DNA of 64,000 nucleotides from the NCBI RefSeq assembly GCF_003130255.1, contig NZ_NRCN01000001.1, forward strand, positions 248,001 to 312,000, in the 5' to 3' direction. Within the stretch, counting starts at the first letter, position 1, and each line of letters begins with the position of its first letter. Under the pieces are notes generated by a model, which saw only the letters and a list, made by a program, of their open reading frames with translations, was not told the origin of the DNA and did not search any database. The DNA comes from Aggregatibacter kilianii (GTDB taxonomy: Bacteria > Pseudomonadota > Gammaproteobacteria > Enterobacterales > Pasteurellaceae). A program made the translations under genes and the position numbers. This document shows, one piece after another, positions 25,678 to 56,055 of the stretch.

Positions 25678-25781
25678 TCTTATAAAAACGTTCTAAAAAA
25701 CGACCGCACTTTGGTTCTTCCAAGCAAAGCACGGTCGTTTTTTTTGAAATGTTTCGTAGAGACTCCGCCACCCAGCCAAAC

Positions 25782-25797
25782 TGTGAGCCAAATCACA
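25782..25797. promoter_or_regulatory. Predicted CRP site upstream of receptor 1
   Basis: TGTGAGCCAAATCACA matches all ten conserved CRP positions. The corresponding site in copy 2 is at 31732-31747. Confidence 0.75.
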
Positions 25798-25869
25798 ATT
25801 TGGCAATTTCTTAATAAAGTTTATTGAACTTATCGCCAACTAGCGTAATGATATCGTCAATTATGCAAA

Positions 25870-25884
25870 TAATAACCATTATTA
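25870..25884. promoter_or_regulatory. Predicted Fur box of receptor 1
   Basis: TAATAACCATTATTA matches 11 of 14 positions of the 7-1-7 Fur motif TGATAAT-N-ATTATCA and lies 18 bp before the start codon. It predicts iron repression. Confidence 0.65.
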
Positions 25885-25901
25885 ATATCATGGAGGAATA
25901 T

Positions 25902-28900
25902 ATGGCGACTAAAAGCAAATTATCACTACTCATCTGCCCGATCGCATTGTTGGTTCACCAATCACTTTACGCCGAAGAACAAACCACGGAAAAATTAGAC
26001 ACCATTGTTGTCAGCGGTCAAGCGGAACAAAAAGCGCAACAAGGCAAAGATGAGGTGTTTCTTAAAGATCAAGTCACTGAATATAAAAGCAAAAAAGAAA
26101 TTGAAACTTATAAAGGGCATTCCGTGGGGGAATTGTTTAACGGAATTAATGGTGTGTATAGCAGTGATGCCCGTAATGCCGGGGCGTTAACGCCGAATAT
26201 TCGTGGTATTCAGGGGCAAGGCAGAATTCCCGTGATTACCGATAACACCGAGCAGGAAGTTACGGTTTGGCGAGGTTATGCCGGGGTGCAAAATCGTAAC
26301 TATATTGATCCCTTTTTAATCAGCAGTATTAGTGCAGAAAAAGGGCCTGCCTTAGGGAGAGATCTAAGTAACGGCGTGGGCGGAACCATCAGAATGACCA
26401 CATTGGAACCGAGCGACATTGTTAAACCGGGACAAAAATTCGGTTTTGAATTTAAAGCAGAAACCGCCAATAATTCGGTAAATAAGCGCCCTCATCCTTA
26501 TGAGGTTGGGGTTGATTCCCGTACATTACCTGATTACGGCAAAACCCAATTAGGTGAATGGGCAATGTATTTTCGCCCAGGTGATGAGCGTTATAAACCG
26601 AGAACGCATGGTCGCAACAAATTCTTCAAAGACAAGGCATATCGGATTGCCGGTGCAGTAAAAGAAGATAACTATGAGTTTCTTGCCGCCTATGCTTATC
26701 GAAGTAAAGGCAATTATTTTGCCGGTAGAAAGGGGGCGGATAAATATGGAGCGAATTTAACTAAAAAGGAAATAGATCAAATAACTAGTGATAGTGGTTA
26801 TGCTAATCAGTTACAAGATCCTTTTGTTCCTTGGATTGGGTTTATTTACCCTCCGGCAACAGAAATTCCAAATACCTCTATGGAAACCAAATCTACTTTA
26901 TTAAAAGGTAGCATTAAATTACCGCATAATCAAAAAATCAGCACGGGTTTTCGCCAATCTAATATTGTCTATGGCGAAATTATGCCTTCTCGTTTAGAGC
27001 CAATATTAGAGCATGCCGGAACGATTTTAGAATGGCCGGAAGCGGAGGTAAAACAAAAAGCGTTTAGTCTTGGATATGATTTTAATCCTGAGAATAATAA
27101 GTGGATCAATTTTAATGCCAATGCCTATTATGTAGAAAATAAAGCCCGTACTAATACGGGATATGGCTCACCCGGTGATATTTTGTTTCAAGATCCGATC
27201 TTTAACGAAGAATATGGGAAGGCTCGTAGTGAATATATTCAAGCATCAATGTATGGCTCTGCGGCAGATTATGGCATGACCGAAGAACAGTTTGCTCAGT
27301 ATCTCGTTCAACTAAAACGTCAAGCGGACGAAGCTTTCAGTAAGATTAAATTGACGACACCAAATATCGACGGGCTACTTAATACTATGCCGGCACAAGC
27401 ACAGTGGACCACAGATAAACACTGGGGGATAAATGCTAGCAATAAATTTGAACTTACACCTAAACTATCTTTGACTGTGATGGCAAATTATAAACGAGAA
27501 AATCTGCATTCTTATAATGTCTTTAAACTCTGGGAAGATTATCGCCATTTACTAGGCAGAAAACCTTATGACATGGCATTAAATAGTATTGCGGATAATG
27601 CCGATGCCAATCGCTGGGGAAAGCGTAATGAATTTAACACCGGTTTTAAATTTGATTATCAACCGTTAGATTGGCTACTACTTTCTGCCGGTGCACGTTA
27701 TACCCACTATAAATCAGTGGATAAAGGATTGCAGTATCGTTTGCGGAACGCTAATCGGGAAGATACGCGGATCAGAGAGTATCAGATTAAGGTTGAACGT
27801 CTTGCTACGCAGGAAGAGTTGGATAAATATTATCAACTCCAAACGACAATGATTTATGATGATCAAGGGCAAGGTAAATTACCGGCAAGTACAACATTGG
27901 AAGATAAAGAGTTTTATCGAAAAATGGAGTATGCAAGTAGCGGATATATCTTACAAGATCCCATTGCGTGGCAACCTGATGAATTCGGACGCTATTCTTT
28001 AAGAAATTATCCCTACTATGATGGACGTGCTTATCAATATAACGACAAATTAACTCAAACCGGAACAAATCTTATTACAGAAGAAACTGATGTGCCGGTT
28101 TATAAGATTGACGACTCGTTACGTAGAGTAATTAGAACAGTTACGGCAGAAGAATGGGCACGCCTGAAAAAAGCCGAACGTACCGCTCATGCTTGGGCGC
28201 CATCTTTTGGTATCACCGTTTTCCCAACGGAAAATACCCGATTCTATGTGCGATATGATGAAGTGAAACGGATGCCGAGTATCTATGAAGATACTTCGGG
28301 TTATGCCAGTATGGAACTCTTCCTACTCACAGAGCGTAAGCCGGAACACAGCAAAAATATTGAAGTCGGTTATATTCATGATTTACACGGATTCCTCCCA
28401 AGTTCACGACGCGCAGATATTAAGTTGAATTATTTCCATAATGTGACCCGTAATGTGTATGACCGCGATATTTTCTATCGCATCACACAGTTTGATAAAC
28501 GCACCTTATCCGGCGTTGAACTGCAAGCCCGTTATGATCAAGGGCGTTTCTTCGCCGATCTTGCATTGACCTATAATATTAAAAATAAATTCTGTGATGC
28601 GGCAACAGCATTAATTGAAACAGGTAGTAATAGTGAGATTATCGTTAACGATTCACCGGCTTATCCAACTTGTGTCAATGGTGGCAATTATGGCGGCTTT
28701 TTAAAAAATACTATCGCTCCGAAATATTCTATTACGGGTAACTTAGGTTTACGGTTCTTTGATGAGCGTTTGCAAATCGGCACCCGTCTACAGTATCACT
28801 CCAATGTAAAAGAATCCCGTTTACGCTCCTTAAAAGAAGCCGGTTTTAGCGAGCTGGGTAATGAACGTCGTTGGCACCCAGTTTTTGTGGTAGATGCCTA

Positions 28901-29045
28901 TGCAAGCTATGCGTTTAACGACAATTTATCTGTCGAGTTGGTCGGTAGCAATATTACTGACCGCTATTATCTCGACCCAATGGCTCGCTCCTCTATGCCG
29001 GCACCGGGTAGAACCATTAAATTAGGATTAACGGCAAGCTTTTAA
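25902..29045 (+). CDS. TonB-dependent outer-membrane receptor 1, probable heme/hemophore receptor
   Basis: The 1047-residue protein starts at 25902 after GGAGGAA. A Sec signal peptide (ending SLYA, about residue 25) is followed by a TonB-box-like EKLDTIVVSG, a plug domain with LTPNIRGIQGQGRIPV, and a large 22-strand barrel ending in LGLTASF with the terminal Phe expected for BamA insertion. The segment RYDEVKRMPSIYEDT is typical of TonB receptors. It precedes a hemophilin-like gene and its Slam translocon, the arrangement described for HphR-type receptors, so heme taken from the hemophore is the likely cargo. The longer open frame from 25824 runs through the Fur box and is rejected. A paralogue lies at 31852-35105. 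Confidence 0.88.
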   Translation: MATKSKLSLLICPIALLVHQSLYAEEQTTEKLDTIVVSGQAEQKAQQGKDEVFLKDQVTEYKSKKEIETYKGHSVGELFNGINGVYSSDARNAGALTPNIRGIQGQGRIPVITDNTEQEVTVWRGYAGVQNRNYIDPFLISSISAEKGPALGRDLSNGVGGTIRMTTLEPSDIVKPGQKFGFEFKAETANNSVNKRPHPYEVGVDSRTLPDYGKTQLGEWAMYFRPGDERYKPRTHGRNKFFKDKAYRIAGAVKEDNYEFLAAYAYRSKGNYFAGRKGADKYGANLTKKEIDQITSDSGYANQLQDPFVPWIGFIYPPATEIPNTSMETKSTLLKGSIKLPHNQKISTGFRQSNIVYGEIMPSRLEPILEHAGTILEWPEAEVKQKAFSLGYDFNPENNKWINFNANAYYVENKARTNTGYGSPGDILFQDPIFNEEYGKARSEYIQASMYGSAADYGMTEEQFAQYLVQLKRQADEAFSKIKLTTPNIDGLLNTMPAQAQWTTDKHWGINASNKFELTPKLSLTVMANYKRENLHSYNVFKLWEDYRHLLGRKPYDMALNSIADNADANRWGKRNEFNTGFKFDYQPLDWLLLSAGARYTHYKSVDKGLQYRLRNANREDTRIREYQIKVERLATQEELDKYYQLQTTMIYDDQGQGKLPASTTLEDKEFYRKMEYASSGYILQDPIAWQPDEFGRYSLRNYPYYDGRAYQYNDKLTQTGTNLITEETDVPVYKIDDSLRRVIRTVTAEEWARLKKAERTAHAWAPSFGITVFPTENTRFYVRYDEVKRMPSIYEDTSGYASMELFLLTERKPEHSKNIEVGYIHDLHGFLPSSRRADIKLNYFHNVTRNVYDRDIFYRITQFDKRTLSGVELQARYDQGRFFADLALTYNIKNKFCDAATALIETGSNSEIIVNDSPAYPTCVNGGNYGGFLKNTIAPKYSITGNLGLRFFDERLQIGTRLQYHSNVKESRLRSLKEAGFSELGNERRWHPVFVVDAYASYAFNDNLSVELVGSNITDRYYLDPMARSSMPAPGRTIKLGLTASF

Positions 29046-29050
29046 TTAAA

Positions 29051-29065
29051 TGATAAGAATTATCA
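29051..29065. promoter_or_regulatory. Predicted Fur box before the hemophilin-like gene
   Basis: TGATAAGAATTATCA matches 13 of 14 positions of the 7-1-7 Fur motif, right after the receptor 1 stop and 108 bp before the next start. The palindrome could also form a weak hairpin. Confidence 0.7.
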
Positions 29066-29172
29066 TTTGTATTAAATAAGCCTTTAGTCTATAGTTAATC
29101 TGTCGTTAATAAGATGTTATGCGACAAAAGGTAGTAGTTCGTTTTTAATCAATTTTATAAAAGGAATAGTCT

Positions 29173-30018
29173 ATGAGTATTTTAACTAAAACTACAATTG
29201 CTGTTGCTGTATTCTCTATGATTGGAGCTGCAGGTGCTGCAACTATAGGTGGAGTAAGTCGTTCAAATGCCGATCCACAAAATAATGGGAAATACAATCA
29301 AGCGATAAAGCATGTAGAAATTGGTACGACAGATAATAAAGCAGGGATTAATATTGCACAAACGGGTCTTAAAGGTGTAAATAATAAAGTTCAAACATTT
29401 AATAAGATTTCTTCCATGAATGGAAAATGGTTTGCTTCTAAAGATGTAATCACCAAGGACAGTAATCAAGTCTATGTAGCTCGTATGTATAATTTTTCTA
29501 AAGTTATTGCTTTAATACCTGGCGTTCCTGAACACCGAGATCTCGGCAGAATGTCCTTCAAACAAGTAGGCAATCAAGATGTTTGGTTCGGTGACTGGGA
29601 AGATGTACCACGTAATAGTAAAAATGCAGCTGCACAATCCTCTAAATACACAGTCTACTATGCAGGTTCTAACCCTACAACTGCCGCACAATTACCAAAA
29701 TCCGGACAAGCCACTTACACTGTGGTCGGTATCAACAAACATCGTGATCCGAACACTGCCGTGTTGAAAGGTGAAATGAAAGCTGATTTTGGTGCTAAGA
29801 CTTTGAACGGCACGATTACCAGAACCGACTTATCCGTTATAGTGAACTCCAAAATCAATGCTGACGCGTCATTTAATGGTACGGCAAAAGCCAATAATAG
29901 CGTGAACGGTATCTCAAAAGGTCACTTTTACGGCAACCAAGCTGCCGCTTTAGCCGGTATTGCGGACTTTGGTGCACATAACCAATACAACACAGCCTTT
30001 GGCGGTACGAAAAAATAA
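29173..30018 (+). CDS. Hemophilin-like secreted hemophore, Slam-dependent
   Basis: The 281-residue protein has a signal peptide (MSILTKTTIAVAVFSMIGAA, cleavage near residue 22) with no lipobox Cys, so it should be released rather than anchored. The C-terminal half carries features of the TbpB-like eight-strand barrel recognised by Slam translocons: TYTVVGINKHRD, GEMKADFGAKTLNGTITRTDL and GHFYGNQAAALAGIADFG before FGGTKK. The N-terminal part is lineage-specific and would hold the ligand site; His47 and His121 (in VPEHRDLG) are candidate heme ligands. Hemophilin (Hpl/HphA) of H. haemolyticus and Acinetobacter has this size and neighbourhood. Naming rests on architecture and context; another Slam substrate is possible. 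The ATG follows AAAGGAAT. Confidence 0.8.
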   Translation: MSILTKTTIAVAVFSMIGAAGAATIGGVSRSNADPQNNGKYNQAIKHVEIGTTDNKAGINIAQTGLKGVNNKVQTFNKISSMNGKWFASKDVITKDSNQVYVARMYNFSKVIALIPGVPEHRDLGRMSFKQVGNQDVWFGDWEDVPRNSKNAAAQSSKYTVYYAGSNPTTAAQLPKSGQATYTVVGINKHRDPNTAVLKGEMKADFGAKTLNGTITRTDLSVIVNSKINADASFNGTAKANNSVNGISKGHFYGNQAAALAGIADFGAHNQYNTAFGGTKK

Positions 30019-30105
30019 GGATAGCTATTTATGAATAGTGACTCGAATTAGCCCTTTTCATCTGTCGGTGGAAAGGGCTTTTAATTTATACATTACGGAG
30101 AGATT

Positions 30106-31548
30106 ATGCGTTATCAATTAGCATTATTATTGGGTTTGAGTATCAACAGTGTCTTGTGGGCTGCGGAGGTTGATACGGATGTGAAATTGCGTCAACAGGC
30201 AGAGTTACAGCGCCAGCAACAGGAGCAACAAATTGTTAACGACGATAATTTCTTCAGCGGGCAACAACAAGAAGAACAATTTGAAATTAATACCTTTGCA
30301 GATCTAACACTCGCGTTGCTTACATCGATTAATAACAAGGATACGCAGGTAATTCAGCAACTGCTAGAATTCTACCGTATTCAACCACAGGCAGAAGAAG
30401 GGATGATCTTATTCGCCGAAGCCAATATCGATCTCAATCAGAATCGCTGGACGCAAGCCATCGACAAGTATAAAAAACTCGTGGAAAACGAACCGCACTT
30501 TTCACGTGGTAAGCTGGATTTAGCACGTCTTTATTTTGCCGATTATCAATTGAAAAACTCTCGTCGCTTATTTGCCGAAATCGACTTGCCTGATAATCCG
30601 AATGTGATGGAAAAAGTAAAAACCTATCAAGCAGAGTTGGATAACCGTGAAATTTGGCATGGTTCTTTTGCATTAGGTTTTGGCTATACACGCAACCTCA
30701 ATCAGACTTCCCGTAAAAAAGTTGAATTAACCGTTTCTGATCCGCTGTTTGGTTTTGAATATCAGTACACCCGTGAAGCGCAGCCAATGCGCTCTGCCGC
30801 GAGTTTAAAATATGAAGCGACGTTGGACAAATATCACAATCTCATTGGTCATCACGGTTTAAGTTTCAAAGCGTCCGGATACGGTGATATTTATCGTAAT
30901 AACTCTACTGATACCGAGCATAATTTCTCACTTGGTCTGGGCTACGGCTACCGTGATCGACATCACAACTTAAGCTTATTACCCGTGTTTGAAAGTGTTC
31001 ATTATGGTAATCATTTATATCTCACGCGAAAAGGAGCTCGTTTAGAATATGCTTTCAATAACTTAGAACGGCTGTATTCTATGGTGACTCTAGAGTATAA
31101 AAATGAGCGTTATAAAGACAAGAAATTTAACCATTACGATGGGCAACTCTTTTCATTGTTTGGAACACAAGTATTTGCACTTAGTAATAAGGTCACTTTA
31201 TTTGGTGGAGTAAATTATTCACGCAAAGGCGGCACAGCATTAGACGCAAACAAATATCAACGCTATGGAGTTTATATCGGTACTGATTTAAGCAGTGATA
31301 TGGGCGTAGATCTCAATGTATCTGCCAATTTACGCCAAACCCACTATCGTGGTTATGATTCTTTGCTTAATGCAAAGCGTAAGGATAATGAACAAATTTA
31401 CAATATCTCCTTAAAGATTCCACACTGGGAATTCTGGGGTTTTGTACCAAGTGTTAATTATAAACACACAAAAGTTCGTAGTAATGTGGATTGGTTATAT
31501 TCCTATAACAAAAATGAAACCTACTTCAAACTTGAGAAGTTTTTCTAA
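30106..31548 (+). CDS. Surface lipoprotein assembly modifier (Slam) translocon
   Basis: The 480-residue outer-membrane protein has a signal peptide ending LWA, a Gln-rich linker, a periplasmic TPR domain (about 65-185, including NRWTQAIDKYKKLVENEPHFSRGKLDLARLYF) and a C-terminal barrel of about 14 strands (about 190-480) ending in Phe. This is the DUF560/Slam architecture. Slam proteins move substrates with TbpB-like barrels across the outer membrane. The gene follows the hemophilin-like gene by 87 bp, so that protein is its probable client. In Acinetobacter the equivalent gene is called hsmA. Confidence 0.9.
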   Translation: MRYQLALLLGLSINSVLWAAEVDTDVKLRQQAELQRQQQEQQIVNDDNFFSGQQQEEQFEINTFADLTLALLTSINNKDTQVIQQLLEFYRIQPQAEEGMILFAEANIDLNQNRWTQAIDKYKKLVENEPHFSRGKLDLARLYFADYQLKNSRRLFAEIDLPDNPNVMEKVKTYQAELDNREIWHGSFALGFGYTRNLNQTSRKKVELTVSDPLFGFEYQYTREAQPMRSAASLKYEATLDKYHNLIGHHGLSFKASGYGDIYRNNSTDTEHNFSLGLGYGYRDRHHNLSLLPVFESVHYGNHLYLTRKGARLEYAFNNLERLYSMVTLEYKNERYKDKKFNHYDGQLFSLFGTQVFALSNKVTLFGGVNYSRKGGTALDANKYQRYGVYIGTDLSSDMGVDLNVSANLRQTHYRGYDSLLNAKRKDNEQIYNISLKIPHWEFWGFVPSVNYKHTKVRSNVDWLYSYNKNETYFKLEKFF

Positions 31549-31851
31549 ACCTTATAAGGTGATTAATTTGTTAAATTAATATTAATTTAAGAATGTACTC
31601 TATATGGACATTTTCCTCTTTCTTTGAGGATAAAACCATCTAAAAAAAATCGACCGCACTTTGGTTCTTCCGATCAAAGTGCGGTCGATTTTTTTGAAAT
31701 GTTTCGTAGAGATTCCGCCACCCAGCCAAACCGTGAGCTAAATCACAATTTGGCAATTTCTTAATAAAGTTTATTGAACTTATCACCAACTCGCGTAATT
31801 ATACCTCCAATCACGCAAATAATAATCATTATTAATATGATAGAGGAATAT
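31549..31851. promoter_or_regulatory. Control region of receptor 2
   Basis: This 303-bp gap holds no gene. It contains an uptake-signal inverted pair at about 31649-31692, a CRP-like site (31732-31747, CGTGAGCTAAATCACA, nine of ten positions) and a Fur box (31820-31834), all aligned with the region before receptor 1. Confidence 0.7.
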
Positions 31852-32095
31852 ATGGCGACTAAAAGCAAATTATCACTACTCATCTGCCCGATCGCATTGT
31901 TGGTTCACCAATCACTTTACGCCGAAGAACAAACCACGGAAAAATTAGACACCATTGTTGTCAGCGGTCAAGCGGAACAAAAAGCGCAACAAGGCAAAGA
32001 TGAGGTGTTTCTTAAAGATCAAGTCACTGAATATAAAAGCAAAAAAGAAATTGAAATTTATAAAGGGCATTCCGTGGGGGAATTATTTAATGGGA
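31640..32095. repeat. Direct repeat copy 2: promoter and N-terminus of receptor 2
   Basis: Second copy of the repeat at 25691-26145, same orientation, offset by about 5.95 kb. Recombination between the copies would delete or duplicate receptor 1, the hemophilin-like gene and Slam. Confidence 0.85.
31820..31834. promoter_or_regulatory. Predicted Fur box of receptor 2
   Basis: TAATAATCATTATTA is a perfect 7-1-7 palindrome and matches 12 of 14 Fur consensus positions, 17 bp before the start codon. It is a closer match than the copy at receptor 1. Confidence 0.7.
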
Positions 32096-35000
32096 TTAAT
32101 GGCGTATATAGTGGTGATACCCGTAATAGTGGCGCCTTAGATCCGAATATTCGCGGCGTTTCGGGACAAGGAAGGATTCCGGTTATTATCGATGGCACGG
32201 AGCAATCAATTACCGTTTGGCGGGGATTTGCGGGAATACAGAATCGTAACTATATTGACCCGTTTTTAATTAGCAGCATTAGTGTAGAAAAAGGGCCTGC
32301 GTTAACATCGGATTTGCACAATGGAACCGGCGGTGCGGTGAAAATGAAAACGTTAGAAGTTGATGATATTGTAAAACCGGGCGAAAAATTTGGCTTTGAA
32401 CTTAAAACAGAAACCGCCAATAATTCCATTAAACGCCGCCCTCACCCCTTCCCAATAGGCGTGGACTATCGCACTTTACCAAATGCTGGTGAGGTTCAAC
32501 TGGGCGATTATGCTATATATTTCCGTGATAATGAAGGTTTACCTCCACGTTCTCATGGGCGTAATCACTTTTTTAACGACAATGCCTATCGTTTTGCAGC
32601 AGCGGTGAAAGAAGACAAATTTGATTTTTTGGCAGCTTACGCTTACCGCAATAAAGGTAATTATTTCTCTGGTAAAAAAGGGGCGGAGAAATATGGTAGA
32701 TATGTTACTTGGAAAGATGTTGAAAAAATGAATCTTGATAAGTTAGATGACCCATATATTCCAATTATCGGTGCTATATATAAGCCCGGAGATGAAATGC
32801 CGAATACTTCCATTGAAACTAAATCCTATTTGTTTAAGACCTCAATTAAGCCTACCCCGACACAAAAATTTAATTTGGGTTATCGACAAAGTGAAATTAA
32901 CTACGGGGAAATTATGCCCTCACGTTTGGGAAAACAAAGAAATCTCTTGGGACAGTATTAGAATGGCCATTATCGGAAGTAAAACAAAAAGCGGTAAATT
33001 TTGATTACGAATATAATCCGGAAGATAACCGTTGGATTAACTTAAAGGTTGGTGCTTGGGCAGTGTTTAATAAAGGTGTGACGAATACCTCTAACGGCTC
33101 GCCGGGAGATGTATTATTTGGTGACACCGCTTTTGATATGGCTTGGGGGCAATGGCATAAAGCAAATACAGAATATGAAGGTGCATTAACCCGCTCTTCA
33201 TTTGCGGAATGGCGTGAAAATCCTTATACAAATAATATATTAAACAAAGAAGAAAATGAAAGATACTTAAATGGACAAATGTCTGAAGCCGAATTTATAT
33301 CTAAAATGGAAGCTCGTCGTACTGAAATTATAAATAAATTAAAAGATGTGGTTCCTGAGTTAAAAAAACAAATTAAACAGACCGTGCCTAATATCAATGG
33401 TATTTTTAATACGGTACCGGCGCAAGCACAATTTTCTAAAGATAAACACTGGGGAATTAATTTTAGTAATCGTCTAACTATTACTCCTAAACTTAATTTG
33501 ACTATAATGACTAACTATAAACGAGAAACGTTGGATTCCACTAGCATATTTCCAATCTGGGATGATTATAAATATTTAACTAATAATCCTGATTCAGGTT
33601 ACCGTGAAGTTTCCAATTTTTCCTCAGAGTATAATGGACGTCGTTACGGTAACCGCAATGAATTCAACGCTGGTTTTAGGTTTGATTATCAGGCTACCGA
33701 TTGGTTGTTATTATCTGCTGGTGCCCGTTATACACATTATAAATCTAAAGATAATACACTAAGTATGCAAACAGCCAATACGGATAGAAAAAATATTAGA
33801 CTTAGTCAAGGTAAGCGTTTCACGATGGGACGTCTTGCTACAAAAGCAGAAAGAGACTTTTTTACTTCTATTCCTGAGATGATTGAAGATCCTAACGGTG
33901 GCGGGATACTTAACGTTGATGAACATTGGGAGGCCTACTACAATCTTTCTGAAGAAGAACAAGCCAGATATGATTTAATGACGAGAACGGAAGATAATGA
34001 AATTAGAGTCAAGGATGTAATTATTGATTGGCGACGGGAACCCGGAAGAGAAGGGTTACCTATTGAGAAATTACCGTATTATGACGGACGAATCAGTTCT
34101 GAAATGTTAAATCGAAAGGTTATCTCCGAAATAAGTGGTAAAGACGTATATTATTATTCACTACCGGGAGTCACCGAGCTTGACCAAGAGGCCATTTCTG
34201 AAGAAGAGTATCAAGAAATGCTTAAAGCTGAACGCAAAGATCATGCATGGGCGCCTTCTTTTGGTGCAACTATCTTTATCACACCCAACAGCCGTGTTTA
34301 TGTACGTTATGATGAAGTTAAACGGATGCCAAGTATCTATGAAGATACTATTGGTTACTCTAATGTGACTGTGAGACCAATATATCGACACAAACCCGAA
34401 CATAGCAAAAACTGGGAGATAGGTTATGTGCATGATTTGCGTGGCATCTTCCCAAGATTGCGTGCCGCTGATGTAAAATTAAATTATTTCCATAATGTGA
34501 CCCGCAATATTTTTGATCGCTCTTCGGACTATACCATTTCCCAATTTGATAAACGCATTTTATCCGGACTTGAATTACAAACCCGCTATGATTTTGGGCG
34601 TATTTTTGCCGATCTTGGTGTGGTATATAACATTAAAAATAAATTCTGTGATCGTTACAGTGCGGTAATGGATTATGGTGTGTTTACTGTTGATCCGGAT
34701 ACCCGCAGTTTTAGAACTCACCCAACTTGTGTCAACGGGGGTAACAAAAATGGTTTTTTGAAGAATACTATTGCACCGAAATATTCTATTACGGCAAATT
34801 TCGGTATGCGTTTCTTTGATGAAAAACTGGAAATCGGTGCCCGTTGGCAATATCACAGCAGAGTAAAAAACAGTTATATGCGCTCATTACGTAAAGCAGG
34901 ATTTTATGAGTATGGTAGTAATGAAGTGCGTTGGCAACCGGTATCCGTATTTGATGCGTATATCAATTACAAAGTGAATAGCAACCTGTCCTTAGAAATT

Positions 35001-35105
35001 GTCGGCACAAACTTAACCGACCGTTATTATTTGGATCCGCTTGCTCGTTCCTCCATGCCTGCACCGGGTAGAACCATTAAGTTAGGGTTAACGGCTAGTT
35101 TTTAA
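31852..35105 (+). pseudogene. TonB-dependent receptor 2, interrupted by a one-base frameshift
   Basis: A paralogue of receptor 1 with an almost identical first 80 codons. The first frame (31852-32961) stops at TAG after MPSRLGKQRNLLGQY. The homologous sequence resumes in another frame from about 32943 (GTVLEWPLSEVKQKA) and stays open to 35105, ending in the same LGLTASF. Adding one base in the A-rich stretch 32931-32942 restores a 1084-residue receptor with exactly seven residues between MPSRL and GTVLEW, as in receptor 1 (EPILEHA). So a single base was lost, either a real inactivation or an assembly error. No other disruption was noticed, which suggests the lesion is recent. Loops in the barrel differ strongly from receptor 1, suggesting a different ligand. 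Confidence 0.85.
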
Positions 35106-35130
35106 TAAATTAAAACTCCCAAAAATGTAA

Positions 35131-35177
35131 CCGCACTTTGATCTGTTTTCTGCTTTTGAGACTAGATCAAAGTGCGG
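35131..35177. terminator. Uptake-signal hairpin after receptor 2
   Basis: A perfect 14-bp inverted repeat (CCGCACTTTGATCT/AGATCAAAGTGCGG) with a 19-nt loop contains two uptake signals in opposite orientation. Confidence 0.75.
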
Positions 35178-35230
35178 TCATAAAAAACAACGTTTTTTAA
35201 ACGCTGGCTTTGCAAATGCGAGGGGTGGAA

Positions 35231-35250
35231 TAAATCACGCAAGTGATTTA
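35231..35250 (+). repeat. Small perfect hairpin beside the IS element
   Basis: TAAATCAC-GCAA-GTGATTTA, followed by AATTTTT, looks like a terminator whose T tract (TAATTTTT) became the insertion target of the IS element at 35263. Confidence 0.5.
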
Positions 35251-35254
35251 TGAA

Positions 35255-35262
35255 TAATTTTT
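35255..35262. repeat. Target-site duplication, left copy
   Basis: TAATTTTT directly abuts the left inverted repeat and recurs at 35982-35989. Confidence 0.85.
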
Positions 35263-35981
35263 GGGGCTGTACTAGATAACTAGACCAGAATCTCTTTAAC
35301 CAATTGTTTTAGAATGGAAATTTGAGATTTTATTTCACTATTGTTAAGGCGCCATTTGCATTCCTTCAAATACAGCTCAAAATGCGCTTTGGGAATGCCA
35401 TTAAACTTGTGCAAATGACGTTTTGCTTGGTTCCAAAAATTCTCAATTCCGTTTATATGGTTATGATTTTCAGCAAAATGCGTACTGTGATTGATGCGGA
35501 AATGACTAAATTCGCTGACATCAAGCACATCATAACTACGGTAAGTGTCAGTGTAAACAATGCTGTCAGGCTTAACTTTCTCACGAATAATTGGCAATAG
35601 TGTTGCTGATTGAGCATTTGGTACAACTACGGTATAAACTTTACCATTTCTCTTGAGAAGTCCGAATACCGCGACTTTGCCTGCTGCGCCACGACCACGC
35701 TTACCTTTGCGAATACCGCCGAAATAGCTTTCATCGGCTTCAATTTCTCCTTCAAACATTTCCAAATGCAGGCTTGTTTGATAAATGAGTAAACGTAATC
35801 GGTGAAAGTAATAAGCGGCTGTATTTTTGTTTACATTTACCAACTCACTTGCTGTTCTAGCCGTAACACCTGCGACAAACAGTTCAATGAGTTTATTTTG
35901 TTTATGCTGACTTAAGCGACTTTTTCTCATTTAAGCATTCTAATCTAAATGAAAGATTTAGTCGTTATCTAGTACAGCCCC
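35263..35981. mobile_element. Intact IS1016-type element (IS1595 family)
   Basis: The 719-bp element has perfect 18-bp terminal inverted repeats, GGGGCTGTACTAGATAAC at 35263-35280 and its complement at 35964-35981. It is flanked by an 8-bp duplication (TAATTTTT) and holds one full transposase gene. Intact ends, gene and duplication indicate a complete and fairly recent insertion. IS1016 elements are known in Haemophilus, including at capsule loci. Confidence 0.95.
35280..35930 (-). CDS. IS1016-type transposase
   Basis: The 216-residue protein has an N-terminal helix-turn-helix and zinc-free N-domain (residues 1-55), then the IS1595-type catalytic core: EADESYFGGIRKGKRGRG (Asp), IVYTDTYRSYDVL (Asp) and HINGIENFWNQAKRHL (Asn-Glu region). 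The frame is uninterrupted and nearly fills the element, its stop overlapping the terminal inverted repeat. Confidence 0.95.
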   Translation of the reverse strand: MRKSRLSQHKQNKLIELFVAGVTARTASELVNVNKNTAAYYFHRLRLLIYQTSLHLEMFEGEIEADESYFGGIRKGKRGRGAAGKVAVFGLLKRNGKVYTVVVPNAQSATLLPIIREKVKPDSIVYTDTYRSYDVLDVSEFSHFRINHSTHFAENHNHINGIENFWNQAKRHLHKFNGIPKAHFELYLKECKWRLNNSEIKSQISILKQLVKEILV

Positions 35982-35989
35982 TAATTTTT
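35982..35989. repeat. Target-site duplication, right copy
   Basis: TAATTTTT, identical to the left copy at 35255-35262. Confidence 0.85.
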
Positions 35990-36040
35990 TTCCACATTTT
36001 TCGGGGCATGAAAGGACGTCCAAATAACAAAAGAAGTTTT

Positions 36041-48285: not shown

Positions 48286-49830
48286 ATGGCAGCTGCAATT
48301 CAACAACGCGCCGAACTTCAACGCCGTATTTGGCAAATCGCTAATGATGTCCGCGGCTCTGTCGATGGTTGGGATTTTAAACAATACGTTTTGGGCTCAC
48401 TTTTCTATCGCTTTATTAGCGAAAACTTTGCTAATTATATTGAAGGTGGTGATAAAAGCGTGAACTATGCCGGTTTATCTGATGACATCATCACGCCAGA
48501 AATTAAAGCAGATGCGGTAAAAACCAAGGGTTATTTTATTTACCCAAGCCAATTATTTAAAAATGTGGTGGCAAATGCCAACACCAATCCAAATCTTAAT
48601 ACCGAATTAAAACAAATCTTTAATGATATTGAAAACTCCGCCATAGGCTACCCTTCAGAGCAGGATATCAAAGGCTTATTTGCCGATTTTGATACCACCA
48701 GCAACCGCTTGGGTAATACCGTTGCCGACAAAAATAGCCGTCTAGCCGCCGTATTAAAAGGCGTTGCCGAGTTAGATTTTGGTGACTTTGAAGATAATCA
48801 TATCGATTTATTCGGTGATGCTTACGAATTTTTAATTTCTAACTATGCCGCTAATGCCGGTAAATCAGGTGGCGAGTTTTTTACACCACAATGCGTTTCC
48901 AAGCTGATTGCTCGACTGGCTTTATATGGACAAGACAAAGTTAATAAAATTTACGACCCGGCTGCTGGTTCTGGTTCTTTATTATTGCAAGCGAAAAAAC
49001 AATTTGATGAACACATCATTGAAGAAGGATTCTTCGGGCAGGAAATCAATCACACCACTTACAACCTTGCCCGTATGAATATGTTTTTGCATAACATCAA
49101 CTACGACAAGTTTGATATCGCCCTTGGCAACACCTTAATGAATCCGCAATTTGGTGAGGATAAACCCTTCGATGCTATCGTTTCTAACCCGCCTTACTCC
49201 GTGAAATGGATTGGTTCGGATGATCCAACGCTAATTAACGATGAACGCTTTGCCCCTGCTGGCGTGCTTGCACCAAAATCCAAAGCGGACTTTGCCTTTA
49301 TTTTGCATGCATTAAGTTATCTTTCAGCAAAAGGTCGCGCGGCGATTGTCTCTTTCCCCGGCATTTTTTACCGCGGCGGTGCGGAACAAAAAATTCGTCA
49401 ATATTTGGTCGATAATAACTATGTGGAAACGGTAATTGCCTTAGCGCCAAATCTATTTTTCGGCACCAGTATTGCAGTGAATATTTTGGTGCTTTCCAAA
49501 CATAAACCCAATACCCAAACCCAATTTATTGATGCCAGCGGTTTATTTAAATCCGCCACCAATAACAACCTTTTGGAAGAGGAACATATTGAGCAAATTC
49601 TCAAATTGTTTGCCTATAAAGAAGATGTGCCACATTTGGCAAAATCGGTTTCCCTTGAAGAAATCGCCCAAAATGACTACAACCTTGCGGTGAGTTCTTA
49701 TGTGGAACAAAAAGACACCCGAGAGGTGATTGATATCGATAAACTCAACGCTGAAATTAAACAAACCGTTGCCAACATCGACCGCTTGCGTGCAGAAATT
49801 GATAAAATTGTAGCAGAGATTGAAGCATAA
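48286..49830 (+). CDS. hsdM: Type I restriction-modification DNA methyltransferase subunit
   Basis: The 514-residue N6-adenine methyltransferase of the EcoR124 (type IC-like) group has an N-terminal HsdM helical domain, the SAM-binding motif [14 protein letters not shown] (about residue 224), the catalytic NPPYS motif in [13 protein letters not shown] (about 305) and a C-terminal coiled coil (about 485-514) for contact with HsdS. The start follows AAAGGAG. It opens the operon hsdM-hsdS-RAYT-rhuM-hsdR. A REP-like palindrome pair lies directly after its stop. Confidence 0.97.
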
Positions 49831-49833
49831 AAT

Positions 49834-49894
49834 GTAGGGTGGGCTTCAGCCCACCAATTTACGATAACACACGGTGGGCTAAAGCCCACCCTAC
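49834..49894. repeat. REP-like inverted pair between hsdM and hsdS
   Basis: GTAGGGTGGGCT leads into a hairpin (GGTGGGCT/AGCCCACC class) at 49834-49855, and an inverted copy ends in AGCCCACCCTAC at 49873-49894. This is the BIME-like architecture of REP elements. Other copies lie at 51165-51230, 51253-51274 and 51835-51895, around the RAYT transposase gene. Confidence 0.85.
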
Positions 49895-49913
49895 TAGGAA
49901 CAACAAAAACACA

Positions 49914-51161
49914 ATGAAAAATAACTGCACTTTTTTAGAAAAATTATTGGATGGGGCTGAGGTTGAGTGGGAGACGCTCGATGAAGTATTCCATTTAAAA
50001 AATGGCTACACCCCATCAAAAGGAATAAAAGAATATTGGGAAAATGGCTCAATTCCTTGGTTTAGAATGGAAGATATTCGAGAAAATGGACGCATTTTAA
50101 ATACAGCATTACAAAAGGTTTCAGAAAGTGCGGTTAAAGGCGGAAAACTTTTCCCCGCAAATTCAATTATTATTGCAACCTCTGCAACTATTGGTGAACA
50201 CGCTTTAATAACCATACCATTTTTAGCAAATCAAAGATTTACTGTTTTATCTTTAAAACCAGAATATATCGATAAATTTAATATTTATTTTCTATACCAT
50301 TACTGTTTTACGCTTGATGATTGGTGTCAAAAAAATACCACTATGTCTAGTTTTGCATCCGTTGATATGAATGGATTTAGGAGATTTCCAATCCCCATCC
50401 CCCCACTCCCCGTCCAAACCGAAATCGTAAAAATTTTGGATGCATTGACAGCGCTTACCAGCGAGCTTACCAGCGAGCTTACCAGCGAGCTTATACTACG
50501 CCGGAAGCAGTATGAATACTATCGGGAGAAATTGTTATCTTTCGATAGTCTAGAGCTATCGGGGGGGGCAATCCAATGGATAAAACTGATTGATTTGGGT
50601 GAGTTAATTCGTGGTAATGGGTTGCAGAAAAAAGATTTTACAGAAACAGGTGTTCCGGCCATTCATTATGGCCAAATTTATACTTACTACGGCACATTTG
50701 CTACTGAAACCAAATCTTTTGTTTCAGCTGAATTAGCTAAAAAATTAAAAAAAGCAAAATATGGTGATGTATTAATTGCTGGAACTAGTGAAAATGTAAA
50801 AGATGTAATGAAACCTCTTGGTTGGCTTGGTAGTGAAATAGCTTTTTCAGGTGATATGTTTGCATTTAGACCCAATAAAAAAGTGAATACGAAATACTTA
50901 ACGTATGTTTTACAAACAGAAAGATTTTATAAATTTAAGGAAAAATATGCCCAAGGCACAAAAGTAATTAGAATTAGAGTTGATAATTTTTTAAATTATG
51001 AAATCCCTCTTCCTCCATTTGAAGAACAACAACGCATCGTTTCAATCCTCGATAAATTTGAAACCCTCACAAACTCCATCACCGAAGGCTTACCTTTAGC
51101 GATTAAGCAAAGCCAAAAGCGGTATGAATATTATAGAGAATTGTTACTGAATTTCTCGTAA
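49914..51161 (+). CDS. hsdS: Type I restriction-modification specificity subunit, with G8 tract and TSEL repeats
   Basis: The 415-residue subunit picks the target sequence. It has two target-recognition domains (about 15-165 and 225-385), each followed by a conserved helix (VQTEIVKILDALTALTSEL... and QQRIVSILDKFETL), ending in the paired segments RRKQYEYYREKLLSF and SQKRYEYYRELLLNF. The start at 49914 follows TAGGAA; the longer frame upstream translates the REP element. In the central helix, TSEL is encoded three times by identical 12-bp units (50457-50492). A run of eight Gs lies at 50561-50568 just after it. Loss or gain of one G ends translation within about ten codons, leaving only the first domain. 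Confidence 0.93.
   Translation: MKNNCTFLEKLLDGAEVEWETLDEVFHLKNGYTPSKGIKEYWENGSIPWFRMEDIRENGRILNTALQKVSESAVKGGKLFPANSIIIATSATIGEHALITIPFLANQRFTVLSLKPEYIDKFNIYFLYHYCFTLDDWCQKNTTMSSFASVDMNGFRRFPIPIPPLPVQTEIVKILDALTALTSELTSELTSELILRRKQYEYYREKLLSFDSLELSGGAIQWIKLIDLGELIRGNGLQKKDFTETGVPAIHYGQIYTYYGTFATETKSFVSAELAKKLKKAKYGDVLIAGTSENVKDVMKPLGWLGSEIAFSGDMFAFRPNKKVNTKYLTYVLQTERFYKFKEKYAQGTKVIRIRVDNFLNYEIPLPPFEEQQRIVSILDKFETLTNSITEGLPLAIKQSQKRYEYYRELLLNFS
50457..50492 (+). repeat. Three tandem 12-bp repeats (TSEL) in hsdS
   Basis: ACCAGCGAGCTT is repeated three times exactly, encoding TSEL-TSEL-TSEL in the central spacer helix. It corresponds to the TAEL repeats of EcoR124/EcoR124-3, whose copy number sets the spacer length in the DNA target. 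Confidence 0.95.
50561..50568 (+). repeat. Homopolymer G8 in hsdS, candidate phase-variation tract
   Basis: Eight consecutive Gs encode part of S216-G-G-A. With seven Gs the frame reaches TAA after codon 222; with nine, TGA after codon 226. Confidence 0.9.
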
Positions 51162-51164
51162 CCT

Positions 51165-51230
51165 GTAGGGTGGGCTTCAGCCCACCAATTAACAACCATA
51201 AATAAAACGGTGTGCTAAAGCCCACCCTAC
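51165..51230. repeat. REP-like inverted pair between hsdS and the RAYT gene
   Basis: The forward unit (GTAGGGTGGGCT... 51165-51186) and its inverted partner (51209-51230, one mismatch in the stem) are separated by 22 bp. Confidence 0.85.
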
Positions 51231-51252
51231 AATGTAATGAGAATATTTTTAT

Positions 51253-51274
51253 GGTGGGCTAAACCCCACCCTAC
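51253..51274. repeat. Single REP-like unit upstream of the RAYT gene
   Basis: GGTGGGCTAAACCCCACCCTAC-type unit (given here as hyphen-free arms GGTGGGCT and CCACCCTAC), 23 bp before the RAYT start codon. Confidence 0.75.
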
Positions 51275-51296
51275 GAACTACAATTTGGAATAATAT

Positions 51297-51827
51297 ATGT
51301 CTAATTATCGTCGCGATTTTACTAAAGGTGGATTATATTTTTTCACAATTGTTTTACAAGATAGAACAAAATCTTATCTAACTGACTATATCAATGAATT
51401 TAGATCTGCATATAAACAAACTTGTGAACATTATCCATTCGAAACAGTAGCAATTTGTATTTTGCCCGATCATATTCATTTACTGATGCAATTACCTGAA
51501 AATGATGATAATTACGCAATACGCATCGCATATTTAAAAACACAATTTACACGACAACTTCCAAAAGAATGCCGACAATTTAATAAAAATAGACAAAAAT
51601 ATCGAGAATCAGGTATTTGGCAACGCCGATTTTGGGAGCATTTAATTCGTGATGATAAAGATTTAGCGAATCATTTAGATTATATTTATTACAATCCCGT
51701 GAAACACGGCTATGTTGAGGTAGTAAAAGATTGGCCGTATTCTTCCTTCCATCGTGATGTGAAAGCAGAGATTTATCCTGAAGATTGGGGAGGCAATCCA
51801 GATTTGAAAATTAAAGGTGATATATAA
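51297..51827 (+). CDS. REP-associated tyrosine transposase (RAYT)
   Basis: The 176-residue Y1/HUH protein has the metal-binding HxH motif in LPDHIHLLMQL (about residue 60) and the nucleophile Tyr in the C-terminal helix region LANHLDYIYYNPVKHGYV (about 125-142), with GIWQRRFWEHLIRD between. RAYTs are single-domain relatives of IS200/IS605 transposases associated with REP elements. Palindromic units flank this gene on both sides (51165-51274 and 51835-51895). It lies on the same strand inside the hsd operon, between hsdS and rhuM. There is no strong ribosome-binding site. Confidence 0.93.
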   Translation: MSNYRRDFTKGGLYFFTIVLQDRTKSYLTDYINEFRSAYKQTCEHYPFETVAICILPDHIHLLMQLPENDDNYAIRIAYLKTQFTRQLPKECRQFNKNRQKYRESGIWQRRFWEHLIRDDKDLANHLDYIYYNPVKHGYVEVVKDWPYSSFHRDVKAEIYPEDWGGNPDLKIKGDI

Positions 51828-51834
51828 CAATACC

Positions 51835-51895
51835 GTAGGGTGGGCTTCAGCCCGCCAATTAACTATAACAAACGGTGGGCTAAAGCCCACCCTAC
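51835..51895. repeat. REP-like inverted pair after the RAYT gene
   Basis: Forward unit at 51835-51856 (one stem mismatch, GCCCGCC) and inverted unit at 51874-51895 (perfect), immediately after the RAYT stop and before rhuM. Confidence 0.85.
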
Positions 51896-51912
51896 AAATT
51901 TGAGAAGAAATA

Positions 51913-52917
51913 ATGAACGACTTAATCATCTACAACACCGATGATGGTAAATCCCATGTTGCATTGCTTGTCGTAGAAAATGAAGCATGGCTAACCCAAA
52001 ATCAGCTTGCCGAACTTTTTGACACCTCTGTACAAAATATCGCCTTACATATAAAAAATATATTAGAAGACAATGAATTAGACGAAAATTCAGTTATCAA
52101 GGATTACTTGATAACTGCCCAAGATGGCAAGCAATATCAAGTAAAACATTATTCCCTTGATATGATTCTCGCCATCGGCTTCCGTGTGCGTAGCCCTCGT
52201 GGTGTACAGTTTCGCCGTTGGGCAAATACGCAATTACGTACTTATTTAGATAAAGGTTTTCTATTAGATAAAGAGCGGTTGAAAAATCCGCAAGGTCGAT
52301 TTGATCATTTTGATGAATTACTGGAACAAATTCGTGAAATTAGAGCCAGTGAATTGCGGTTTTATCAAAAAGTACGAGAGTTATTTAAATTATCCAGTGA
52401 CTACGATAAAACAGATAAAGTCACTCAAATGTTTTTTGCAGAAACACAAAATAAGTTGATCTATGCCATTACACAACAAACCGCCGCAGAGCTTATTTGT
52501 ACTCGTGCAAATGCTGAATTGCCTAATATGGGCCTCACCTATTGGAAAGGTACTGTTGTACGTAAAGGCGATATTATTACCGCTAAAAACTATTTAACCC
52601 ATGATGAATTAGATTCCTTGAATCGTCTAGTGATGATCTTTTTAGAAAGTGCCGAATTGCGCGTTAAAAACCGTCAAGATCTGACATTAAATTTCTGGCG
52701 TAATAATGTCGATAATTTAATTGAATTTAACGGTTTTCCGTTGCTTATCGGCAATGGAACCCGAACTTCAAAACAAATGGAAACCTTCACCAAAGAACAA
52801 TATGCCTTATTTGATCAAGTCAGAAAACAGCAAAAACGCATACAGGCTGATAATGAAGATTTAGAAATTTTAGAAAAATGGCAAAAAGATCTGAAAAAGC
52901 AAAAAATCAATAATTAA
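51913..52917 (+). CDS. RhuM-family protein within the hsd operon
   Basis: The 334-residue protein matches the RhuM family named from a Salmonella pathogenicity island: an N-terminal winged-helix-like DNA-binding region (LTQNQLAELFDTSVQNIALHIKNIL), then SLDMILAIGFRVRSPRGVQFRRWANTQLRTYL, and a charged C-terminal coiled coil (KQQKRIQADNEDLEILEKWQKDLKK). Such genes are often found in type I restriction loci, but their function is not known. It begins 17 bp after a REP unit and ends 9 bp before hsdR, so it is probably cotranscribed with it. Confidence 0.88.
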   Translation: MNDLIIYNTDDGKSHVALLVVENEAWLTQNQLAELFDTSVQNIALHIKNILEDNELDENSVIKDYLITAQDGKQYQVKHYSLDMILAIGFRVRSPRGVQFRRWANTQLRTYLDKGFLLDKERLKNPQGRFDHFDELLEQIREIRASELRFYQKVRELFKLSSDYDKTDKVTQMFFAETQNKLIYAITQQTAAELICTRANAELPNMGLTYWKGTVVRKGDIITAKNYLTHDELDSLNRLVMIFLESAELRVKNRQDLTLNFWRNNVDNLIEFNGFPLLIGNGTRTSKQMETFTKEQYALFDQVRKQQKRIQADNEDLEILEKWQKDLKKQKINN

Positions 52918-52926
52918 GGAAAATTC

Positions 52927-55900: not shown

Positions 55901-56055
55901 AACGAGGATATGCTAGCGAGCAAGGTACGGATTTAAATGATGTACTTCCTAAAATGAGTCCACTTAATCCGCAATACCTCACAACAAAACAACGTATATT
56001 CCAAAAAATAGCAGCATTTGTTGAGAAGTTTAAAGGGATTGGGGGAAGTATCTAG
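52927..56055 (+). CDS. hsdR: Type I restriction endonuclease subunit
   Basis: The 1042-residue EcoR124-type motor nuclease has an N-terminal PD-(D/E)XK nuclease domain ([21 protein letters not shown]; Asp about 151, Glu-x-Lys about 165-167), a superfamily 2 translocase with Walker [16 protein letters not shown] (about 310), a DECHRSQFG box (about 410), GFTGTPIF and a later [21 protein letters not shown] motif VI region, then a helical C-terminal HsdM-binding domain. All motifs appear intact. One uptake signal (AAGTGCGGT) lies inside the gene near 54647. It starts after AAGGAAA. Confidence 0.97.

What the first reader, a model, noticed from the sequence alone, without database searches (positions are those of the whole stretch)
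25691..35105. Hemophilin-like Slam secretion locus with two TonB receptors
The order is TonB receptor, signal-peptide protein with a TbpB-like barrel but no lipobox, Slam translocon, second TonB receptor, with Fur boxes at both receptors and before the secreted protein, and CRP sites at the receptors. This matches the architecture of hemophilin (Hpl/HphA) systems, where a soluble hemophore is exported by Slam and gives heme to its own receptor. The N-terminal domain looks lineage-specific, so the ligand could be heme or a new one. Two receptors for one hemophore is unusual.
Basis: partly seen in the sequence, partly recalled or inferred. Interest (0 to 1): 0.85.

Follow-up and report, generated by a model that had tools for sequence, protein, structure and literature searches.

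The report
Hemophilin locus with broken spare receptor
This bacterium carries an inserted gene set that should make and export a heme-catching protein of a known kind, but its unusual second uptake receptor is broken and belongs to the version of the system found in a sister species, which suggests that receptor and heme-catcher are swapped together.

Summary
29173-30018 encodes a soluble hemophilin: Pfam HphA_N and HphA_C, no cysteine, predicted fold closest to H. parainfluenzae HphA and H. haemolyticus Hpl. Slam (30106-31548) and an intact heme-type TonB receptor (TBDR1, 25902-29045) accompany it. The second receptor (31852-35105) is split by a frameshift, which the finding does not mention. 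Heme is the likely ligand: His121 aligns with Hpl position 119. Hemophilin systems are already described.

New here: (1) of 28 full-length hemophilin loci in 140 Pasteurellaceae genomes, only this one has a second receptor. (2) The broken receptor is the orthologue (81-89%) of the only receptor found beside the Aggregatibacter kilianii hemophilin. TBDR1 and the hemophilin N-domain diverge from that locus (56-58% and 44-53%), while the barrel is 97% alike. This fits joint exchange of receptor and heme-binding domain. (3) The locus is an islet between dolP and can, a junction without it in 6 of 8 other Aggregatibacter genomes.

Most likely: one working hemophilin-receptor pair plus the decaying receptor of the other allele. 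No expression, binding or secretion was tested.

The parts
25902..29045 (+). TBDR1: intact TonB-dependent receptor of heme/hemoglobin type; probable mate of the hemophilin. ATG at 25902 (the ORF opens at TTG 25824)
   Evidence: Plug E 4.5e-9 and barrel E 6.6e-24; TIGR01785 heme receptor E 1e-57, below its cut-off; start site read by eye
29173..30018 (+). Hemophilin: signal peptide (about 1-23, by eye), N-terminal heme-binding domain (about 24-120), pedestal and C-terminal barrel (121-281)
29533..29535 (+). codon of His121, aligned with Hpl position 119
   Evidence: invariant in A1 (7 rows) and A2 (19 rows) and in 32 of 32 rows; H. quentini homologue is 272 aa with this His at 119
30050..30079 (+). 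terminator-like hairpin between hemophilin and Slam, possibly limiting Slam relative to hemophilin
   Evidence: 13 such sites in the region against 8.2 expected, sd 2.8, so weak evidence
30106..31548 (+). Slam (type XI) outer-membrane translocon
   Evidence: SlipAM E 1e-51, TPR_Slam E 3.7e-17
31852..32961 (+). TBDR2, first piece (signal peptide, plug, start of barrel), ends at a premature stop
   Evidence: 89% aa to the A. kilianii hemophilin receptor
33063..35105 (+). TBDR2, second piece (most of barrel), in another frame
   Evidence: 81% aa to the A. kilianii receptor
25695..26132 (+). 5' module shared with 31645-32082 (417 of 438 bases identical, 214-base exact run): terminator with uptake signal, CRP-like and Fur-like sites, RBS, signal peptide, start of plug
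31645..32082 (+). second copy of the shared 5' module
25782..25797 (+). CRP-like site, TBDR1
   Evidence: 0 mismatches
31732..31747 (+). CRP-like site, TBDR2
   Evidence: 1 mismatch
29051..29065 (+). Fur-like box before the hemophilin
   Evidence: 1 mismatch
31820..31834 (+). Fur-like box, TBDR2
   Evidence: 2 mismatches
25870..25884 (+). weak Fur-like box, TBDR1
   Evidence: 3 mismatches, not above chance on its own
25719..36029 (.). stretch absent at the same junction in relatives: the islet plus IS1595 (35280-35930)
   Evidence: blastn to L081-L086, sequence of the L081 junction

Best explanation
This is a hemophilin heme-acquisition islet in an Aggregatibacter. The hemophilin enters the periplasm by its Sec signal peptide, leaves through the Slam translocon by its C-terminal barrel, binds heme in its N-terminal domain with His121 as a ligand, and delivers heme to TBDR1, which imports it with TonB energy; low iron (Fur) and CRP control it. 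The receptor and the hemophilin N-domain behave as a matched cassette that is exchanged between strains or species while the barrel and the front of Slam are kept. TBDR2 is the receptor of the other cassette type (A. kilianii type), kept behind Slam under a copied promoter module and now inactivated by a frameshift. Shown here: homology, predicted fold, frameshift, orthology of TBDR2, mosaic divergence, junction without the islet in relatives. Inferred: secretion, heme binding, pairing of TBDR1 with this hemophilin, regulation, and the order of events.
For: Hemophilin, Slam and receptor assignments. Frameshift in TBDR2; no other clearly split gene stood out by eye in the window's ORF list. Window against A. 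kilianii (L031): barrel 97%, Slam 88%, hemophilin N-domain 53% (44% in the tblastn), TBDR1 58% aa, but TBDR2 pieces 89% and 81%. Synonymous divergence: TBDR2 dS 1.07 and 0.99, inside the range of 9 flanking genes (0.80-3.56; fourfold-site identity 0.51 and 0.55 against 0.43-0.58); barrel 0.38 and Slam front 0.50, i.e. more recently shared; TBDR1 dS 2.1, dN 0.35. DNA identity along the hemophilin jumps from 63% to 97% at about 29534. Across 25 loci the receptor distance tracks the N-domain distance after removing barrel and Slam (partial rank r 0.52, 0 of 2000 permutations reach it; receptor-barrel 0.40, also 0 of 2000; receptor-Slam 0.31, 12 of 2000). 1 of 28 family loci has a second receptor. 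Receptors of this family that do not stand directly upstream of a hemophilin are more often broken: 4 of 11 against 2 of 28 without TBDR2 (Fisher p 0.042), 5 of 12 with it (p 0.017) (counts read; tests).
Against: The frameshift rests on one assembly without reads, so a sequencing error is possible. In the receptor tree TBDR1 is sister to TBDR2 plus the kilianii receptor (99/99, long branch), so TBDR1 could be a fast-evolving duplicate rather than an import, and no donor for TBDR1 or its N-domain was found in the genomes searched. The Slam rear is more divergent than background (aa 81%, fourfold identity 0.30), so the export module is a mosaic too. The receptor also tracks the barrel and Slam (0.40 and 0.31), so coupling is not exclusive to the N-domain. 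The broken-receptor comparison is not corrected for kinship and is weak without TBDR2. Only one close pair shows the swap cleanly. The model is poorly resolved (pLDDT under 50) at residues 33-43 and 115-120, the latter just before His121.
Confidence: 0.7

Rival explanations
1. Two working receptors for one hemophilin: the frameshift is an assembly error or is bypassed, and both receptors import heme from the same hemophilin.
For: TBDR2 keeps promoter module, CRP-like and Fur-like sites and constrained codons (dN/dS about 0.05 and 0.12); one disabling change was seen.
Against: Two frames with a premature stop; no simple-sequence repeat at the break that would suggest phase switching (read by eye); no other clearly split gene noticed in the window; 27 of 28 family loci have one receptor.
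Confidence: 0.15
2. Xeno-hemophore receptor: TBDR2 was kept to take heme from hemophilins secreted by other species (A. kilianii type), as siderophore pirates do, and was lost recently in this strain.
For: TBDR2 is the orthologue of a receptor that stands beside a different hemophilin N-domain and shows purifying selection. Receptors of this family occur without a neighbouring hemophilin in other genomes, and a third copy in this genome has none beside it.
Against: No binding data; broken here; lone receptors are broken in 4 of 11 cases, and they may simply take free heme or hemoglobin.
Confidence: 0.1
3. The secreted protein binds something other than heme.
For: N-domain diverges from the closest relative (53%); NF041636 is a general Slam-cargo model; the N-domain is the least certain part of the model.
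Against: HphA_N match, the histidine at the Hpl ligand position, receptors closest to the TIGR01785 heme-receptor model beside it.
Confidence: 0.05

Closest known systems
Hemophilin Hpl of Haemophilus haemolyticus (PDB 6OM5) and HphA of H. parainfluenzae (8GLO)
   Different: N-domain sequence; here an islet with an additional broken receptor
HphA/HsmA/HphR of Acinetobacter baumannii (7RE4)
   Same: receptor, hemophilin, Slam trio; reported Slam-dependent secretion and receptor-dependent heme uptake (PMC8560813, abstract and passages seen)
   Different: HphA uses two His ligands, H43 and H106 (PMC8560813 passages); only one has an evident counterpart here; that locus includes hemO, while no heme oxygenase is among the 8 proteins scanned here
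HrpA/HrpB/HrpC of Xenorhabdus nematophila (type XI secretion)
   Same: soluble TbpBBD cargo with DUF560 translocon and TonB receptor (PMC8406197 passages seen)
   Different: that locus also encodes TonB; no second receptor is described in the passages seen
A. kilianii PN_491 hemophilin locus (L031/L042)
   Same: hemophilin barrel 97%, Slam 88%, receptor orthologous to TBDR2
   Different: one intact receptor, upstream; other N-domain; other flanking genes

Membership tests
Hemophilin (Hpl/HphA) | N-terminal heme-binding domain plus C-terminal 8-stranded barrel | tested here: met
   HphA_N and HphA_C above cut-off; predicted structure
Hemophilin (Hpl/HphA) | axial His ligand position kept | tested here: met
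   H121 aligns with position 119 of a 272-aa Hpl homologue; His in 32 of 32 rows. That His119 is the Hpl ligand is recalled from Latham et al. 2020 (not read); a PMC8560813 passage says a single His
Hemophilin (Hpl/HphA) | signal peptide without lipobox, soluble | tested here: met
   no Cys in the protein; signal peptide read by eye, no signal-peptide program was run
Hemophilin (Hpl/HphA) | binds heme and feeds the cell through its receptor | not testable with these tools
   needs protein and growth assays
Slam / type XI translocon | SlipAM barrel with N-terminal TPR | tested here: met
Slam / type XI translocon | exports the neighbouring cargo | not testable with these tools
   needs a secretion assay
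TonB-dependent heme receptor (TBDR1) | plug plus barrel | tested here: met
   Plug and barrel above Pfam cut-off
TonB-dependent heme receptor (TBDR1) | NCBIfam heme-receptor subfamily score | tested here: inconclusive
   TIGR01785 is the best NCBIfam hit, E 1e-57, but 196 bits against a cut-off of 317
TonB-dependent heme receptor (TBDR2) | single open reading frame for plug and barrel | tested here: not met
   two frames
Two-receptor hemophore system | two intact receptors that use the same hemophore | tested here: not met
   second receptor frameshifted in this assembly; use itself not testable

The most novel reading that the evidence does not exclude
Hemophilin systems evolve by swapping matched 'key and lock' cassettes (hemophilin N-domain plus receptor) onto a constant Slam-export module, so that strains own private heme. 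Displaced receptors are kept for a time as pirates of the neighbours' hemophilins, as in siderophore-receptor games.
Probability: 0.25. Interest if true: 0.68.

Novelty: new variant of a known kind. Interest (0 to 1): 0.45.

Why it matters
Hemophilin from H. haemolyticus starves non-typeable H. influenzae of heme and is discussed as a bacteriotherapy (PMC10964412 and PMC12119688, start of abstract and passages seen). Whether a hemophilin can be used only by its maker decides if it works as private goods. A natural pair of alleles, one with its receptor left behind, gives a direct way to test hemophilin-receptor specificity.

Tried and rejected
Tried without gain: 19-mer Fur consensus (0 matches); hemophilin in viral contigs (35 stretches matched a pattern, none a relative); plasmids (8 records, none covering 80% of the query); hemophilins in a sample of the class (3 of 369 genomes at E<=1e-18, this genome being one of the 3); promoter-like sites (23 against 30 expected). 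Papers: Shin et al. 2024 and Grossman et al. 2024, seen only as references in PMC12282271, are not held, so 'no second receptor described' reaches no further than the searches and the passages seen.

Considered and rejected: dS of whole Slam (0.93) as proof that Slam and TBDR2 were inherited together. Splitting Slam showed a mosaic (front 0.50; rear dS not computable, fourfold identity 0.30), so that argument was dropped. Phase variation at the TBDR2 break: no simple repeat seen there. Lipobox: no Cys.

Rows dropped: the distance test used 25 of 32 rows (left out L047, L048, L052, L056, L057, L058, L068: duplicates, near-duplicates or broken receptors). The receptor tree used 20 of 32 hemophilin-linked receptors, TBDR2's second piece and 7 intact lone receptors. 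The 32 rows contain some loci twice, under a named and an unnamed record. In the broken-receptor counts the decayed locus in G068 (L079) is left out. Gene names of flanking genes (dolP, can, diaA, lpoA, yraN, rsmI, msrAB, ccdA, trx) are recalled labels; only the BON and SIS domains were run.

Full report
What is there. The window lies in a 2.46-Mb genome (3 contigs). Its genus is Aggregatibacter by inference: same-genus genome G006 has the contig length and position of A. kilianii PN_491. The locus runs TBDR1 (25902-29045), hemophilin (29173-30018), Slam (30106-31548), TBDR2 (31852-35105, split), then an IS1595 transposase (35280-35930).

The second receptor. Two frames, 31774-32961 and 33063-35105, give plug and barrel pieces. 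The pieces are 89% and 81% identical to the one intact receptor of the A. kilianii hemophilin locus, whereas TBDR1 is 56% identical to it. Synonymous divergence of TBDR2 from that receptor (1.07, 0.99) lies inside the range of nine flanking genes (0.80-3.56), with dN/dS of about 0.05 and 0.12, so it was under constraint until recently. Its 5' module, promoter included, matches that of TBDR1 at 417 of 438 positions, with a 214-base exact run: the two copies have exchanged sequence recently or one 5' end was copied.

The mosaic. Against A. kilianii the hemophilin barrel is 97% and its N-domain 53% identical (44% in the shorter tblastn match), with the DNA identity changing from 63% to 97% at about 29534. 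Barrel and Slam front have dS 0.38 and 0.50, below background; Slam rear is more divergent than background. Receptor and N-domain therefore differ together while barrel and Slam front are shared. In another genus, the two listed pairs among L065-L067 show a similar tendency: Slam 97 and 99%, N-domain 62 and 62%, receptor 68 and 70%, though there the barrel differs too (78 and 76%). Over 25 loci the partial rank correlation of receptor and N-domain distances is 0.52 (0 of 2000 permutations), above receptor-barrel (0.40, 0 of 2000) and receptor-Slam (0.31, 12 of 2000). A receptor tree puts TBDR1 as sister to TBDR2 plus the kilianii receptor (99/99) on a long branch, so the two receptor types are old alleles or paralogues of this lineage. 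No outside donor was found.

How unusual. In 140 Pasteurellaceae genomes, 28 full-length hemophilin matches (E<=1.6e-49; the next is 2.5e-19) in 27 genomes were found. All 28 have receptor, hemophilin and Slam in this order, and only the window has a second receptor of this family (profile scan of the fetched stretches, which reach at least 3.1 kb beyond Slam). Receptors of this family that do not stand directly upstream of a hemophilin number 12 at E<=1e-60, TBDR2 included. Without TBDR2, 4 of 11 are broken, against 2 of 28 linked ones (p 0.042); with it 5 of 12 (p 0.017). Kinship is not corrected for.

Origin. dolP (ends 25633) and can (begins 36041) are direct neighbours in 6 of 8 other Aggregatibacter genomes (L081-L086). 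In the closest (L081, 92% DNA identity on the dolP side) 82 bases separate the two aligned blocks. In the other two the junction cannot be compared: in G001 the block holding dolP lies the other way, with can beyond its far end, and in G006 the two genes are on different contigs. Only G006 among the eight also has a full-length hemophilin, between other genes. Terminators with uptake signals stand at the islet edges and before TBDR2 (25703, where only one arm is exact; 31653/31677; 35130/35170), and the L081 junction has one such terminator. This fits entry by natural transformation and recombination in the terminator. It is inference, since the signal occurs 47 times in the window.

Regulation. 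CRP-like sites before both receptors stand out. The Fur-like box before the hemophilin is good; those at the receptors are fair and weak.

Verdict. A real hemophilin locus, thus a known kind, in an unusual state: one probable working pair plus the broken receptor of the other allele. The strongest new point is the joint divergence of receptor and heme-binding domain over a shared barrel and Slam front, which is testable. Confidence 0.70 for this account as a whole (set slightly lower after the recount without TBDR2 gave p 0.042); about 0.95 for hemophilin identity alone.

Noticed in passing
L073 6170-9475 (own genome, C1 about 1118172-1121414): A third receptor of the same family without hemophilin or Slam beside it; in the tree it is close to a lone receptor of another genus (L077), suggesting transfer.
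   Followed up: partly
L079 7634-8425 and the bases just after: Remains of a hemophilin locus: receptor fragment and a Slam fragment in a 93-aa open frame; no hemophilin match there.
   Followed up: no
L090 8509-10112: Converse case: two tandem hemophilin-like genes with one receptor and one Slam in a genome of another family.
   Followed up: no
L087 2228-12829: In G001 the gene block with dolP lies the other way and is followed by genes that look by eye like an ABC transporter set, then can: a rearranged neighbourhood.
   Followed up: no
L070 5503-13815: Two lone receptors of this family separated by one gene, with no hemophilin or Slam beside them.
   Followed up: no
own genome C1 543341-543667 (L024, L041): Second Slam-cargo-like barrel protein, 37% identical to part of the hemophilin barrel.
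   Followed up: no
48286-56055: Genes that look by eye like a type I restriction-modification system with a transposase-like gene among them.
   Followed up: no
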